A stretch of 36,842 nt of DNA, from positions 1 to 36,842 of the forward strand of contig JAFGJG010000059.1 of NCBI GenBank assembly GCA_016929195.1. The letters are read 5' to 3'. The stretch comes from Thermoleophilaceae bacterium. GTDB taxonomy: Bacteria; Actinomycetota; Thermoleophilia; Solirubrobacterales; Thermoleophilaceae. This document shows positions 8,546-15,370 of this stretch, in pieces. The position numbers and the translations under genes are program-made. The notes below the pieces were generated by a model. It had not been told where the DNA came from. It was given only the letters and a program-made list of their open reading frames with translations, and did no database searches. Position 1 is the stretch's first letter. Every line of letters begins with the position of its first letter.

Positions 8546-9229
8546 TCAGACGCTGAGCGTCCCGCCCGGATCGAGCACCTCGACCGTGGTGCTCCCGCCC
8601 GTGCGCGACTCCACGTCCTGCTTGAAGGCCTGAGCGTCCGTCTCGATCGGCGGGAACGTGTCGTAGTGGCACGGGACCACGGTCCTCGCGCCGACCCACT
8701 CCGCCGCGATCGCCGCGTCGTGGCGGTCCATCGTGTAGTGGCCCCCGATGCACATGAGCGCCACGTCCACCGGGTCGCGTTCCTTGACGAGCTTCAGGTC
8801 CGAGAACAGGCAGGTGTCGCCGAGGTGGTAGACGACCTTGCCGCCGAGGTTCACGACGAGCCCGGCGGGCGTGTTCACGGTGCCGTTCGGCGTTGTCGAG
8901 GTGTGCCACGCGGGCACCAGCCGGACCCAGCCCCAGTCGAACTCGACCGTGCCGCCGAGGTTGGGGTCGGAGACGTTCTCCACGCCCTGCTCCCCCAGCT
9001 CGCCGGCGAGCTCGACGATCGCCAGGGCCGGGGCGCCCGTGCGCTTCGCGATGTCGACCACGTCGCCGTAGTGGTCCGAATGGCCGTGCGTGAGCAGGAT
9101 GTGGGTGGGCTCGAGCTCCGACGCCTCGACGGCTGCCTTCGGGTTGCCGGTCAGGAACGGGTCGATCAGCACGCGCGTGTCACCTTCGCTCAGCTCGAAG
9201 CACGCGTGCCCCAGGAAGCGGATGTCCAC
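8546..9229 (-). CDS. Metal-dependent hydrolase, UPF0173 family (MBL fold)
   Basis: The protein of about 227 residues starts VDIRFLGHACFEL and carries the metallo-beta-lactamase metal motif THGHSDHYGD plus further metal positions HLGDTCLFSDLK and CHYDTFPP. This pattern is characteristic of the UPF0173 family of small zinc hydrolases with undefined substrates. I chose the GTG at 9227-9229 because GGAGGAG lies about 10 bases upstream and the previous stop is 4 bases away. A longer in-frame form would overlap the upstream gene. It probably forms an operon with the 106-residue unknown and the rhomboid-like gene. Confidence 0.88.
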   Translation of the reverse strand: MDIRFLGHACFELSEGDTRVLIDPFLTGNPKAAVEASELEPTHILLTHGHSDHYGDVVDIAKRTGAPALAIVELAGELGEQGVENVSDPNLGGTVEFDWGWVRLVPAWHTSTTPNGTVNTPAGLVVNLGGKVVYHLGDTCLFSDLKLVKERDPVDVALMCIGGHYTMDRHDAAIAAEWVGARTVVPCHYDTFPPIETDAQAFKQDVESRTGGSTTVEVLDPGGTLSV

Positions 9230-9233
9230 TGTC

Positions 9234-9554
9234 TCAGTCTCCTCCGTCGTCGTTTTCAGTCTCGAGCTCACGGGCGAGCTCCCAGCCGACGGCCACGCCG
9301 ATCAGCATGCCCATGCGCGTCTCCTCCGCGAGGAGCGTGCGCACGCGGTCCTCCTGATCGCCGGGGTCGGCGGCGAGCGCCTGGCGCAGCTGCGACTCGT
9401 GCGCCTCGCCGAACCAGCCGCCCTCCTCGAGCGCCTGGGCGAGTATGAGCTGGAGCTGGGGGGCGACAGCCGCCAGGCTGCGCTCGGCGCCCGCGAAACG
9501 CTCGGGGTCCGACAACGCTTGGACGGCCGCCTCGACCTGCTCGTCCGTGAACAC
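9234..9554 (-). CDS. Hypothetical protein, 106 residues
   Basis: I do not recognise the family. The sequence is mostly helical and acidic, with FTDEQVEAAVQALSDPERFAGAERSL near the start and EETRMGMLIGVAVGWELARELE near the end, and it lacks a signal peptide. The GTG at 9552-9554 is favoured because TAGTAT (9562-9567, minus strand) lies 7 bases upstream. That hexamer uses the TAG stop of the rhomboid-like gene. A start at 9602 would overlap that gene. It lies 4 bases before the MBL hydrolase start, so the two are likely co-translated. Confidence 0.7.
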   Translation of the reverse strand: MFTDEQVEAAVQALSDPERFAGAERSLAAVAPQLQLILAQALEEGGWFGEAHESQLRQALAADPGDQEDRVRTLLAEETRMGMLIGVAVGWELARELETENDDGGD

Positions 9555-9564
9555 CGGCGGGATA

Positions 9565-10359
9565 CTAGAACGCGCTCTTCCGCGTGAAGAGCGGGAGAGC
9601 AAGGCCCAGCAGGGCCCCGGCCGCCGCGCCGCCGAGCGCGGCCCCGACGTTCGCCTCGACCACGGCGAGCGACAGCAGGACGAGCACGGCGGCCGACACG
9701 TAGACGCCGATCAGGTCGTTGCCGCGCTCGTCGCCGCGGCGTGCGGCGAGGCGGTCGTCCACGAGCCACGCGAACAGCAGGCCGAGCGCGGCACCGTTCG
9801 CGCCGAGCACGGGATAGACGGCGCGGTCGTCGAGCAGCGGGGGCACCTCGAGCGAGACGGCCACCGCGGCGCCCGCGGCGCCGGCCAGCACGAAGACGAG
9901 CACGACCGGCACGGGGCCGAAGCGGCGCTCGAGCATGGTCCCGAAGATCCCGACGCCCAGGAGCGAGGCGAACTGGTAGCCGAGGCTGTCGTGCACGAAC
10001 GGGGTGGTGAACCAGCGCCAGATGTCCTCGTCGAGCGGGACGATCACGCCGCCCACGTCGTTCAGGAACACCTCGCCGGTCGCGACCACGAGCGACAGGA
10101 CGAGCGAGACGGCGATGATCGTGAGCGTCGCGTAGGGCCTGACGTCGGGAGCGATCCCGACGATCTCCTCCGCGCGAAGGCGCGGCAGCTTGGGCCGTCC
10201 GCGCCGGCGCCCGCGCCCCTCCGCGCGGGCCTCACCACCGCGATCGATCTTCGGCGCCCGCTTGCGGATCCGCTGCCCGCAGTAGGGGCACTCGGTGACG
10301 TACGGGCTGACCTCCGACCCGCAGTTCTTGCAGACGACGAAGAGGTCCGGCTGTGACAC
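9565..10359 (-). CDS. Zinc-ribbon rhomboid-family membrane protein lacking both catalytic residues
   Basis: The 264-residue protein starts with a zinc ribbon (Cys10/Cys13/Cys24/Cys27), then a basic linker, then at least six hydrophobic segments (from about 78 to 258). Rhomboid features are clear: WRWFTTPFVHDSLGYQFASL (114-133) and FGTMLERRFG. However, the GxSG nucleophile motif reads GANGAALGL with Asn188 in place of Ser, and the partner His of the last segment is Asn237 (EANVGAALGG). It is therefore predicted to be an inactive pseudoprotease that may bind membrane clients. The GTG start has TACCCT (10367-10372) 7 bases upstream and a 21-base palindrome before that. It heads a likely operon with the 106-residue and MBL genes. 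Confidence 0.87.
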   Translation of the reverse strand: MSQPDLFVVCKNCGSEVSPYVTECPYCGQRIRKRAPKIDRGGEARAEGRGRRRGRPKLPRLRAEEIVGIAPDVRPYATLTIIAVSLVLSLVVATGEVFLNDVGGVIVPLDEDIWRWFTTPFVHDSLGYQFASLLGVGIFGTMLERRFGPVPVVLVFVLAGAAGAAVAVSLEVPPLLDDRAVYPVLGANGAALGLLFAWLVDDRLAARRGDERGNDLIGVYVSAAVLVLLSLAVVEANVGAALGGAAAGALLGLALPLFTRKSAF

Positions 10360-10407: not shown

Positions 10408-11544
10408 CTACTCCTGCGGTATGTCCGCCTCCTCGGGCACCGTGGCCGCGACGATCTCCGCGACCACCTCGCGCAGGTCGTGGTTCGCCTCGTAGACGAC
10501 CGCCTGCCGCGACGCACCGTTGCCGTTCTCGAGGATGTCCTCCACGCATTCGAGGTCCTCGGTCGACCCGAGCTCCTCGGCATGCGGCGCCAGGCGGTCC
10601 AGCAGCCGGCGGGTGAGGTCGGCGGCCGGCACCCGGCTCATGTCCGGGAGGTCCACCAGCGAGCCGCCGAGCCCGTGGCGGGCGGCGAGGAACTTGTTCT
10701 CGTCGAGCATCTCGTACGGGTAGCGCGACAGCTCCGTGCCGGCCTCGTAGTGCTCGGCCAGCTCCTTCACCATCGCCTGGATCAGGGCGGCGAGCCCGAT
10801 CGTGTGCTCCACGCGCGTCTGCGAGTCCATCACGCGCACCTCGACGGTCCCGAAGTTCGGGTGCGGGCGGACGTCGTACCAGAGGTAGGTGTAGTCGCGG
10901 ATCACCCGGCTCCCCGTCATGAACTCGATCCGGGCCGCCCAGTCGTCGAAGTCCCGGTAGCGCGGCGGGATGCCCACGCGCGGGAAGGCGCGGAAGATCG
11001 GCGTGCGGGTCGAGTCGAGCCCGGTCTGGTCGCCGCGCCAGAACGGCGAGTTCGCCGACAGCGCGAGCAGCAGCGGCAGGTGGACCCGCATCCCGTTCGT
11101 CACGTGGATGGCCTTGTCCGGGTCGTCGACACCGACGTGGACGTGGATCCCGAAGATGATCTCCTGACGCGCCACGAACTGGAGCCCCGCGATCAGGTCG
11201 CGGTAGCGCGGGCGCGAGACGATCCGCTGGTCCTCCCACAGGGCGAACGGATGGGTCCCGGCGGACCCGACCCGGAGCCCGCGCGCCGACGCCACCTGCT
11301 GCACCGTCCGGCGGAGCGCGCGTAGCTGCTCGCCGACCTCGCGCGTGCCGCTGCAGGGAGTCGTCGCGATCTCGCACACGGACTCCATCAGCTCGGGCTT
11401 GACCTCGCCCTGCATCGGGATCTCGCGCAGATCCGCGAGGAGCCCCTCGATCGAGTTCGACAGGTCGAGCGTCTCCGCGTCGACGATCATGAGCTCTTCC
11501 TCCACGCCGAGCGTGTAGGGAGGGCCGGAGAAGCGGTGCTCCAC
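10408..11544 (-). CDS. GCS2-family carboxylate-amine ligase (glutamate-cysteine ligase-like)
   Basis: The 378-residue protein matches the YbdK/GCS2 family. TLGVEEELMIVD near the N-terminus, CEIATTPC, the metal and substrate motif IIFGIHVHVGVDD, LLLALSANSPFWRG and TVEVRVMDSQT are all present. Members form gamma-glutamyl or related amide bonds with ATP. In actinobacteria they are often annotated as putative glutamate-cysteine ligases, but substrates are usually untested. The GTG at 11542-11544 is chosen because TACGAT (11551-11556) lies 6 bases upstream. The in-frame ATG at 11604 would add 20 low-information residues and collide with the divergent small gene. No thiol-pathway gene is adjacent, so its role in thiol synthesis is open. 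Confidence 0.88.
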   Translation of the reverse strand: MEHRFSGPPYTLGVEEELMIVDAETLDLSNSIEGLLADLREIPMQGEVKPELMESVCEIATTPCSGTREVGEQLRALRRTVQQVASARGLRVGSAGTHPFALWEDQRIVSRPRYRDLIAGLQFVARQEIIFGIHVHVGVDDPDKAIHVTNGMRVHLPLLLALSANSPFWRGDQTGLDSTRTPIFRAFPRVGIPPRYRDFDDWAARIEFMTGSRVIRDYTYLWYDVRPHPNFGTVEVRVMDSQTRVEHTIGLAALIQAMVKELAEHYEAGTELSRYPYEMLDENKFLAARHGLGGSLVDLPDMSRVPAADLTRRLLDRLAPHAEELGSTEDLECVEDILENGNGASRQAVVYEANHDLREVVAEIVAATVPEEADIPQE

Positions 11545-11602
11545 GCGGGCATCGTAACCAGCGCGGGGGGCGGGAGGGCGTGCGTAGTAGCCTTCCCGCG
11601 TC

Positions 11603-11842
11603 ATGCGAATGCGGCAATCACTCGCGCAGTTCGAGCGCGAGTTCCTGGAAGAGGCGGAGGAGTCCGTCGTACGTCGCGAGCGGCTCCGGAAGACGGCTGC
11701 TCAGCGTTCCAAGGTGCGCCGCGTCGAGCGCTCCCGCAAGGCCGGCAAGCTGCGCTTCACGATGCTCTCGCTGACGATCGTCGCCACCGCCGTGGTGGTC
11801 ACGATCGCGATGTTCGAGACGCTCGCCCGGATCGCCGGGTAA
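11603..11842 (+). CDS. Small single-pass membrane protein
   Basis: The 79-residue protein has a highly charged, probably helical N-terminal half (REFLEEAEESVVRRERLRK, RRVERSRKAGK) and one membrane segment near the C-terminus (about 53-73). The family is not recognised. The charge pattern suggests a cytoplasmic coiled-coil head and a tail anchor. TAGCCT (11588-11593) lies 9 bases before the ATG, with no Shine-Dalgarno. It is divergent from the carboxylate-amine ligase and convergent with csrA 9 bases away. Confidence 0.7.
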   Translation: MRMRQSLAQFEREFLEEAEESVVRRERLRKTAAQRSKVRRVERSRKAGKLRFTMLSLTIVATAVVVTIAMFETLARIAG

Positions 11843-12226: not shown

Positions 12227-12790
12227 TTGGCACGGCGATCGCTCAAGCCACAGCTGAACCAGATCCGCACCTGGGTGCGGCAGGGCCGGACCGACGCGTG
12301 GATCGCCCACCAGCTCGACGTCTCGGTGGGTGACATCCGCTCGTTCAAGCGCGACCACGACCTGGCGCCCGAAACCGGCGAAGCTGACACCGATGCCGTC
12401 GGCGTCGGCGAGCTCGACGAGCCCGATCTGCGCGCCGAGGACGACGCGCTCGTGGCCGCCGCGCTCGAGGCCGAGGCGGAGGAGCAGGACGACGACGAGC
12501 CCGACGCCGACGACGAGCCCGACTCGGGCGACGACGACAACGGCGACAAGCCGCGCAAGCGCCGTCGCGGACGCCGCGGCGGTCGCGGCCGGCGCAAGCG
12601 CCCCGCCGCGCTCGAGGGGACGTTCGACCACGGCGACGAGGGCTACGGGCTCTGGCTCGACCCGGCCGTTCAGGACGACCCCGTCTACGCCGAGCACTGG
12701 GCCGGCCACCGGCCCGTGACCATCGTGGTCGAGCCGGAGCGGATCGTCATCACGCGCACCGGCGAAGAGCCCGACTCGGACGAGGACTAG
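12227..12790 (+). CDS. Putative nucleic-acid-binding protein: N-terminal HTH, acidic linker, arginine-rich segment
   Basis: The 187-residue protein has four visible parts. The first is an HTH-like segment (about 8-43: IRTWVRQGRTDAWIAHQL then VSVGDIRSFKRDH). A strongly acidic Asp/Glu stretch (about 47-107) follows. An Arg/Lys/Gly-rich segment (about 108-127: RKRRRGRRGGRGRRKR) comes next. The last part is a compact C-terminal domain (EGYGLWLDPAVQDDPVYAEHW, ITIVVEPERIVITR-like). The architecture suggests DNA or RNA binding with charge-patterned disorder. I do not know a named family. The TTG start at 12227 has TAGTCT (12212-12217) 9 bases upstream and no Shine-Dalgarno. It converges with the next small gene. 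Confidence 0.7.
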   Translation: MARRSLKPQLNQIRTWVRQGRTDAWIAHQLDVSVGDIRSFKRDHDLAPETGEADTDAVGVGELDEPDLRAEDDALVAAALEAEAEEQDDDEPDADDEPDSGDDDNGDKPRKRRRGRRGGRGRRKRPAALEGTFDHGDEGYGLWLDPAVQDDPVYAEHWAGHRPVTIVVEPERIVITRTGEEPDSDED

Positions 12791-12799
12791 GCCCGGGTC

Positions 12800-13126
12800 C
12801 TACGGGCGCGCGTGCGTCTCGCGGGCGCGGCCGCCCGCGAAGTCGGAGGCCTCGCGCGCATAGCGGCCGAACGCCGCATCCACGACGGCGGCTGCATCGG
12901 TGCCGGCGGCATGACGGCGGGCCAGCTCCGTGGCCCAGTCGGTGTCGGCCCCGTAGAGGTCCACCAGCTCGCCCAGCACGAAAGACGACCCGAGGCGGCG
13001 GCGCAGCTGCTCCACGACCGCGTCCGCCGCGCGGTCCAGGTCGGCACGCGCGGGCTCGCTCGTCTCCGCGAGTCGGCGTTCGCCCTCGCGCCACTGAAAG
13101 AGGGCGTTCTCCGGCGCGTAGCTCAC
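12800..13126 (-). CDS. Hypothetical protein, 108 residues
   Basis: The family is not recognised. This is a soluble, helical protein opening MSYAPENALFQWREGERRLAE, with LRRRLGSSFVLGELVDLYGADTDWATELARRH in the middle. The latter is conserved-looking and free of low complexity, so the gene is likely real. The GTG start (13124-13126) has TAGCCT (13134-13139, minus strand) 7 bases upstream, and that hexamer begins with the TAG stop of ftsB. It follows ftsB on the same strand but appears to have its own promoter. Confidence 0.72.
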   Translation of the reverse strand: MSYAPENALFQWREGERRLAETSEPARADLDRAADAVVEQLRRRLGSSFVLGELVDLYGADTDWATELARRHAAGTDAAAVVDAAFGRYAREASDFAGGRARETHARP

Positions 13127-13136
13127 GCGCCCGAGG

Positions 13137-13451
13137 CTAGCGGGGCAGTCTGTGCACCACGTAGGGCCGCTCGCCCTGGCGCACCATGCCCAGGCGGCGT
13201 GCCTCGCGCTCCAGGGCGCCCGGGTCCCTGAGCGCGTGGACCCGCTTCTTGAGGGCCCTGTTGTCGTCCCGCAGCGACTGGAGCTCGCGCTTCTGCTCGC
13301 CGGCCGTGCGCGACTGCTGGAGCCAGTGGCGTGCGGGTGACACGTACAGGCTGAGGATCACGAGCAGCGTCGCGAGCAGAGCGATGCGCCCCACCCGGTC
13401 CCAGCGGATCCCCGCGGACCGGCGAGGGCGTGCTGCTGCTGCGTAGGCCAT
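13137..13451 (-). CDS. ftsB: FtsB/DivIC-like septum formation initiator
   Basis: The 104-residue protein has a basic N-terminus, one membrane segment (about 22-40) and a coiled coil (about 45-75: AGEQKRELQSLRDDNRALKKRV), followed by LEREARRLGMVRQGERPYVV. This is the FtsB/DivIC pattern. It should sit in the membrane with its coiled coil outside and join FtsL and FtsQ in the divisome. Location right after eno (36-base gap) is the usual actinobacterial arrangement. AAGGGG lies 8 bases before the ATG. Confidence 0.88.
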   Translation of the reverse strand: MAYAAAARPRRSAGIRWDRVGRIALLATLLVILSLYVSPARHWLQQSRTAGEQKRELQSLRDDNRALKKRVHALRDPGALEREARRLGMVRQGERPYVVHRLPR

Positions 13452-13487
13452 TCGGGTGCCCCTTCGGCGCCCGCGGCCGCGTTCCTC

Positions 13488-15370
<1,883 letters not shown>

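What the first reader, a model, noticed from the sequence alone, without database searches (positions are those of the whole stretch)
9565..10359. Rhomboid pseudoprotease with zinc ribbon: both catalytic residues are Asn
The rhomboid fold signatures are preserved (WRWFTTPFVH, FGTMLERRFG, six or more membrane segments), but Ser in GxSG is Asn188 and the partner His is Asn237. Both codons were checked in the DNA (AAC in each case). The rest of the gene is intact, so this looks like a maintained pseudoenzyme rather than decay. The N-terminal four-Cys ribbon could bind nucleic acid or protein. Eukaryotic iRhoms and derlins show that dead rhomboids can work as client-binding factors. The operon with a 106-residue unknown and an MBL hydrolase may define its partner set.
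Basis: partly seen in the sequence, partly recalled or inferred. Interest (0 to 1): 0.62.

Follow-up and report, generated by a model that had tools for sequence, protein, structure and literature searches.

The report
Order-wide dead rhomboid with zinc ribbon
This gene encodes a rhomboid membrane protease that has lost its whole cutting site in every relative examined across one order of soil bacteria, yet is kept as one copy per genome with a nearly unchangeable zinc-binding tip, so it probably handles membrane proteins without cutting them.

Summary
The 264-aa ORF at 9565-10359 (-) is intact. It carries a four-Cys ribbon and a Pfam Rhomboid domain, and its predicted fold matches GlpG (Z 19). 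Asn188 does replace the catalytic Ser. The catalytic His position, however, is Ala241 and not Asn237: Asn237 lies one helical turn earlier, where active relatives carry Ser. The oxyanion pair is also gone (Tyr128, Ser132), so all four active-site residues are replaced, while 22 of 22 catalytically complete rhomboids from the same class keep them.

This is not one decayed copy. All 53 same-order (Solirubrobacterales) genomes sampled have it. No member has the TM6 His in either set (56 and 81 sequences, largely the same organisms), and dN/dS is 0.11-0.36. The family is one clade, and the same genome carries two catalytically complete rhomboids. The most constrained part is the ribbon plus its KRAPK tail (82-84% mean pairwise identity, against 38-41% for the membrane domain). 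Asn188 is common (79%), not fixed; Asn/Asn is not a conserved pair.

Best reading: a dedicated bacterial rhomboid pseudoprotease. I infer an adaptor: the cytosolic ribbon docks on a conserved partner and the rhomboid fold holds membrane clients, like YqgP for FtsH. Partner and clients are unknown.

The parts
9565..10359 (-). zinc-ribbon rhomboid pseudoprotease gene, 264 aa
   Evidence: ORF; Pfam Rhomboid and Zn ribbon; orthologue alignment
10249..10347 (-). N-terminal four-Cys zinc ribbon and RxRKRAPK tail (aa 5-37), the most conserved part
   Evidence: mean pairwise identity 0.82-0.84 versus 0.38-0.41 for the TM domain; fourfold-site divergence is not reduced there
10144..10248 (-). basic, variable cytosolic linker (aa 38-72)
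   Evidence: net charge of aa 29-75 averages +10; low pLDDT
9586..10143 (-). six-helix rhomboid membrane domain (aa 73-258)
   Evidence: model m572c8d1125a3; Z 19.4 to GlpG
9976..9978 (-). Tyr128, at the position of GlpG His150
9964..9966 (-). Ser132, at the position of GlpG Asn154
9796..9798 (-). Asn188 (AAC), at the position of catalytic Ser201
9637..9639 (-). Ala241 (GCG), at the position of catalytic His254
9649..9651 (-). Asn237 (AAC), one turn before the His site; not the His position
   Evidence: Ser in 21/22 active relatives
9234..9554 (-). neighbour: 106-aa all-helical protein of an order-specific family
8546..9229 (-). neighbour: UPF0173/PRK00685 metallo-beta-lactamase-fold hydrolase
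   Evidence: NCBIfam NF001911 E 7e-79
10408..11604 (-). neighbour: YbdK-type carboxylate-amine ligase (GCS2)
   Evidence: Pfam GCS2 E 1e-59, NF010039 E 3e-114

Best explanation
It is a dedicated rhomboid pseudoprotease of the order Solirubrobacterales: a membrane protein with the rhomboid fold but no catalytic machinery, fused to a short cytosolic zinc ribbon. SHOWN: all four active-site residues are lost across the order, the fold is kept, the gene is under purifying selection, and the ribbon is the most constrained part. INFERRED: it works as a non-cutting membrane adaptor. The rhomboid bundle recognises transmembrane clients laterally, helped by its membrane-thinning shape. The ribbon and its basic tail, on the cytosolic side, dock on one highly conserved cytosolic machine; my first guess is FtsH, and the ribosome or Sec machinery is the second. 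The adaptor hands clients to that machine, like B. subtilis YqgP for FtsH or Derlins in ERAD. I put catalytic inactivity and active maintenance at about 0.95 and the adaptor mechanism at about 0.45.
For: Catalytic columns: 22/22 catalytically complete class relatives have H150/N154/S201/H254, and the family has lost the set. No His at column 241 in 56 orthologues or 81 sequences; these two sets overlap heavily in organisms. Fold positions stay invariant or nearly so: W114, E144, R146, G148, G186, G244, G248, G252. Modelled fold Z 19.4 to GlpG, 17.2 to iRhom1, 10.9 to Derlin-1. Found in 53/53 same-order genomes and 39/39 good-quality close relatives. dN/dS 0.11-0.36 in the 20 closest pairs. One clade, 100/99 support, apart from active rhomboids, with the catalytic columns removed. 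Two catalytically complete rhomboids coexist in the genome. Ribbon conservation is at protein level, since fourfold sites diverge equally in ribbon and TM domain. Positive charge supports a cytosolic ribbon (inference). Precedent: YqgP is an FtsH adaptor independently of its protease activity, and its cytosolic N-terminal domain binds Mn/Zn and is needed for this (PMC7231995); Derlins and iRhoms (PMC12615303).
Against: No partner or client is identified. Neighbouring genes are metabolic (YbdK-type ligase, MBL hydrolase) and give no quality-control context. No defining adaptor motif was found. The ribbon has no significant solved relative (best E 0.03). The former active site is only moderately conserved: N188 ranks 42nd-47th of 186 TM positions, so a precise role for that pocket is not supported. 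Inactivity is inferred from sequence, not assayed.
Confidence: 0.5

Rival explanations
1. The rhomboid bundle is only a membrane anchor. The conserved ribbon with its RKRAPK tail is the working part, for example tethering ribosomes, RNA or a soluble enzyme to the membrane.
For: Ribbon 82-84% identical versus 38-41% for the TM domain; strongly basic tail and linker; weak, non-significant resemblance to RNA/ribosome zinc ribbons such as bL32, all E > 0.1.
Against: The specific fold residues of rhomboids (W114, E144, R146, G148, the TM6 GxxxGxxxG) are invariant or nearly so over an old divergence, which a bare anchor would not need.
Confidence: 0.25
2. It regulates the active rhomboids of the same cell by binding their substrates or the proteases themselves, as first proposed for iRhoms.
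For: Two catalytically complete rhomboids are encoded in the same genome.
Against: No genomic link with either active gene; no other evidence.
Confidence: 0.12
3. It works with the adjacent 106-aa helical protein and the MBL hydrolase as one complex.
For: The 106-aa family is confined to the same order (47 of 53 same-order genomes, none outside); directly adjacent in 43 of 80 loci.
Against: The 106-aa gene is coupled to the MBL gene (gap of 10 bp or less in 47/53) rather than to the rhomboid. selD is inserted antisense between them in at least 15 loci, and in some genomes the two are far apart or on different contigs.
Confidence: 0.12
4. It is a decaying or recently inactivated protease, or an artefact of this assembly.
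For: The pseudo-catalytic columns drift (N, H, S, Q and others at 188).
Against: Order-wide, open frame, one clade, purifying selection, no member with the TM6 His.
Confidence: 0.01

Closest known systems
YqgP (GluP) of Bacillus subtilis, FtsH adaptor rhomboid (PMC7231995)
   Same: Rhomboid fold with a cytosolic metal-binding N-terminal domain; its adaptor role does not need proteolysis
   Different: YqgP keeps the Ser/His dyad and is also an active protease; its N-terminal domain is, as far as I know, not a four-Cys ribbon; no sequence comparison was run here
Derlins (Der1, Dfm1)
   Same: Rhomboid fold without catalysis; W-R motif and TM6 GxxxG kept; structural Z 10.9 to Derlin-1
   Different: Eukaryotic ER proteins with a C-terminal p97-binding SHP box, which this protein lacks (C-terminus ends ...FTRKSAF); no zinc ribbon
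iRhom1/iRhom2
   Same: Dead rhomboid with an important cytosolic N-terminal part; Z 14-17; HMM hits E about 1e-5
   Different: No large L1 iRhom homology domain here; no GPxG at the serine site (GANG instead); bacterial
B-box zinc-finger rhomboid proteases of Actinomycetota (e.g. L171 in the same genome)
   Same: N-terminal zinc finger plus rhomboid domain, same phylum
   Different: All S/H/H/N catalytic residues present; a different zinc finger (CYRHP...CxxC); separate clade
E. coli GlpG
   Same: Fold (Z 19.4), WR, ExRxG and GxxxG motifs
   Different: S201, H254, H150 and N154 replaced by N188, A241, Y128 and S132

Membership tests
Rhomboid superfamily (fold) | Pfam PF01694 match | tested here: met
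   59 bits against a cut-off of 22.6; 78/78 members scanned
Rhomboid superfamily (fold) | six-TM rhomboid bundle | tested here: met
   AlphaFold2 pLDDT 86.7; Z 19.4, rmsd 2.7 to GlpG over 172 residues
Rhomboid superfamily (fold) | WR in L1, ExRxG after TM2, GxxxG in TM6 | tested here: met
   W114, E144, G148, G244, G248 invariant or nearly so; R115 in 69/81
Active rhomboid protease (S54) | catalytic Ser in GxSG of TM4 | tested here: not met
   Asn188; Ser in only 4 of 81 family members
Active rhomboid protease (S54) | catalytic His in TM6 | tested here: not met
   Ala241; no His in 81 sequences; 22/22 active controls have His
Active rhomboid protease (S54) | oxyanion His150/Asn154 in TM2 | tested here: not met
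   Tyr128/Ser132; 22/22 controls have H and N
Rhomboid pseudoprotease | conserved family that keeps the fold and lacks catalytic residues | tested here: met
Rhomboid pseudoprotease | maintained by selection | tested here: met
   dN/dS 0.11-0.36
Rhomboid pseudoprotease | binds membrane-protein clients without cleaving them | not testable with these tools
   needs biochemistry
iRhom | large iRhom homology domain in L1 | tested here: not met
   only about 20 residues between TM1 and the L1 helix
iRhom | Pro in GPxG before the serine site | tested here: not met
   GANG in the window; position 187 is A, G, S or T in all 81
Derlin | C-terminal SHP box for p97 | tested here: not met
   C-terminus ends shortly after TM6...FTRKSAF
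YqgP-like adaptor rhomboid | FtsH interaction | not testable with these tools
   none
YqgP-like adaptor rhomboid | homologous metal-binding N-terminal domain | not tested
   YqgP sequence not compared

The most novel reading that the evidence does not exclude
A bacterial order has evolved a dedicated Derlin/iRhom-like client receptor: the near-invariant 33-residue zinc ribbon docks the dead rhomboid on the ribosome or a membrane AAA protease, making a co-translational membrane-protein quality-control or biogenesis factor unknown elsewhere in bacteria.
Probability: 0.2. Interest if true: 0.8.

Novelty: new variant of a known kind. Interest (0 to 1): 0.55.

Why it matters
Rhomboid pseudoproteases with known functions (iRhoms, Derlins) are eukaryotic. 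The YqgP work argues that their adaptor role arose in bacteria, but from an enzyme that is still active. A whole bacterial order that keeps a dedicated dead rhomboid beside active ones would be a natural test case for non-proteolytic rhomboid function. Its nearly invariant ribbon gives a direct handle for finding the partner. Cultured hosts exist (Solirubrobacter, Conexibacter).

Tried and rejected
Asn237 as the catalytic His site: rejected. Decay of one copy: rejected. DNA-level constraint as the cause of ribbon conservation: rejected, fourfold sites diverge equally. Link to the Pup-proteasome: Pup absent in 41/41 order genomes, control positive in Corynebacterium. Identity of the ribbon by sequence: no significant solved relative; the ribbon does not recur elsewhere in the genome (next best E 0.6). 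The 106-aa neighbour: no Pfam or NCBIfam family; all-helical model only. Phylum-wide DNA pattern for the ribbon was too strict, since it missed the window itself, and is uninformative. Several genome searches failed for technical reasons. Literature searches found no description of this family, but only open-licence papers are held. Caveat: the 80-locus set was found through ribbon motifs, so ribbon conservation was re-measured on the whole-protein set (0.82).

Full report
OBSERVATION. The reverse-strand ORF 9565-10359 (264 aa, GTG start) is intact. It has a Pfam Rhomboid domain (aa 110-254, E 8e-16) and an N-terminal zinc ribbon (E 2e-5, just under the Pfam cut-off). An AlphaFold2 model from 78 sequences (pLDDT 86.7) shows a short ribbon, a disordered basic linker and a six-helix bundle. 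The bundle aligns with GlpG at Z 19.4 over 172 residues, with iRhom1 at 17.2 and with Derlin-1 at 10.9.

CORRECTION. The family profile aligned to GlpG places Ser201 on Asn188 but His254 on Ala241, not on Asn237. To test this independently I aligned 27 family members with 22 catalytically complete rhomboids from the same class, two of them from the same genome. In the active set, columns 128/132/188/241 are H/N/S/H in 22 of 22. In the family they are mostly Y / A,T,C,S / N / G,A. Column 237 is Ser in 21 of 22 active enzymes: it is the residue one helical turn before the catalytic His.

MAINTENANCE. Orthologues were found in 57 of 61 close relatives and in 39 of 39 good-quality genomes among them. 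They were found in all 53 same-order genomes of a class-wide sample, while the remaining class genomes gave only weak hits; of 20 such weaker hits that I fetched (18 from outside the order, two from inside), all are rhomboids with the B-box-type N-terminus and an intact Ser/His pair. A phylum-wide sample gave family-level scores only in the same order. A scan of named genomes returned 192 relatives; the 80 kept are almost all labelled Solirubrobacterales, Thermoleophilaceae, Conexibacter or Solirubrobacter, or by phylum or class only. Across 56 orthologues of the first set and 81 sequences of the second (the two sets share many organisms) there is no His at 241. The four members with Ser at 188 also lack the His. 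Pairwise dN/dS in the 20 closest pairs is 0.11-0.36. With the catalytic columns removed, the family is one side of a branch with 100/99 support; the tree used only close active relatives and says nothing about deeper placement.

WHAT IS CONSERVED. Fold residues (W114, E144, R146, G148, G186, A197, W198, G244, G248, G252) are invariant or nearly so. The former active site is middling: N188 ranks 42nd-47th of 186 TM positions, position 241 ranks 56th-78th. Asn188 is therefore favoured but not required. The ribbon and its tail (aa 5-37, LFVVCKNCGSEVSPYVTECPYCGxRxRKRAPK) are by far the most constrained: mean pairwise identity 0.84 in the 80-locus set and 0.82 in the whole-protein-search set, against 0.41 and 0.38 for the membrane domain. 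The second figure matters because the first set was collected through ribbon motifs. Fourfold-degenerate sites diverge equally in both regions (0.50), so the constraint is on the protein. The ribbon does not recur elsewhere in the genome and has no significant solved relative.

SURROUNDINGS. The order gcs2 (YbdK-type ligase) - rhomboid - 106-aa protein - MBL hydrolase is widely kept. The 106-aa gene and the MBL gene are within 10 bp in 47 of 53 loci. The rhomboid and the 106-aa gene are directly adjacent in 43 of 80 loci, with an antisense selD between them in at least 15. The 106-aa family is also order-specific (47 of 53 same-order genomes, none outside), so co-evolution with the rhomboid is possible, but the arrangement ties it first to the hydrolase. 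In some genomes the two genes lie on different contigs.

MECHANISM. Shown: loss of the catalytic set, retention of the fold, selection, and the dominance of the ribbon. Inferred: the N-terminus is cytosolic (basic linker, positive-inside loops), and the protein is an adaptor that binds transmembrane clients in the rhomboid fold and a conserved cytosolic machine through the ribbon. The nearest experimental precedent is YqgP, whose cytosolic metal-binding domain and rhomboid core present MgtE to FtsH independently of proteolysis (PMC7231995). Derlins and iRhoms give the eukaryotic parallels (PMC12615303). A Pup-proteasome link is unlikely, since Pup was not found in 41 order genomes. The main rival is that the bundle is only an anchor for the ribbon; the invariant rhomboid fold residues argue against it.

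NOVELTY. It is a rhomboid pseudoprotease, a known kind, but not an iRhom or a Derlin on the features tested, and unlike YqgP it lacks the catalytic pair. I found no paper on it in the held open-access library, which lacks most subscription journals, so the claim of an undescribed family is provisional. The 2025 review states that inactive members occur across all domains, so dead bacterial rhomboids as such are not new; a universally kept, ribbon-bearing, order-wide family is the new element.

Noticed in passing
9234-9554 (-): 106-aa all-helical protein family with no Pfam or NCBIfam match, found in 47 of 53 same-order genomes and in none of the other class genomes searched; its long C-terminal helix carries a conserved GMLVGVAVG stretch.
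   Followed up: partly
L063, L064, L066, L077, L091 and others, between rhomboid and 106-aa gene: selD (selenide water dikinase) gene inserted on the opposite strand in at least 15 loci; absent from the window.
   Followed up: partly
window 12227-14759: Conserved surrounding cluster: hypothetical 187-aa gene (no Pfam match), DivIC-like septum protein and enolase accompany the rhomboid locus in many genomes.
   Followed up: no
L171:1068-1886 (-): Active-type rhomboid in the same genome with an N-terminal B-box-like zinc finger, matching PF00643 just below its cut-off.
   Followed up: partly
L046, L048, L050, L052 (family f4): One family of the order has lost even the Asn at position 188 (I or Y instead); in two sampled genomes of this family (G033, G039) the 106-aa gene lies on another contig than the rhomboid.
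   Followed up: no
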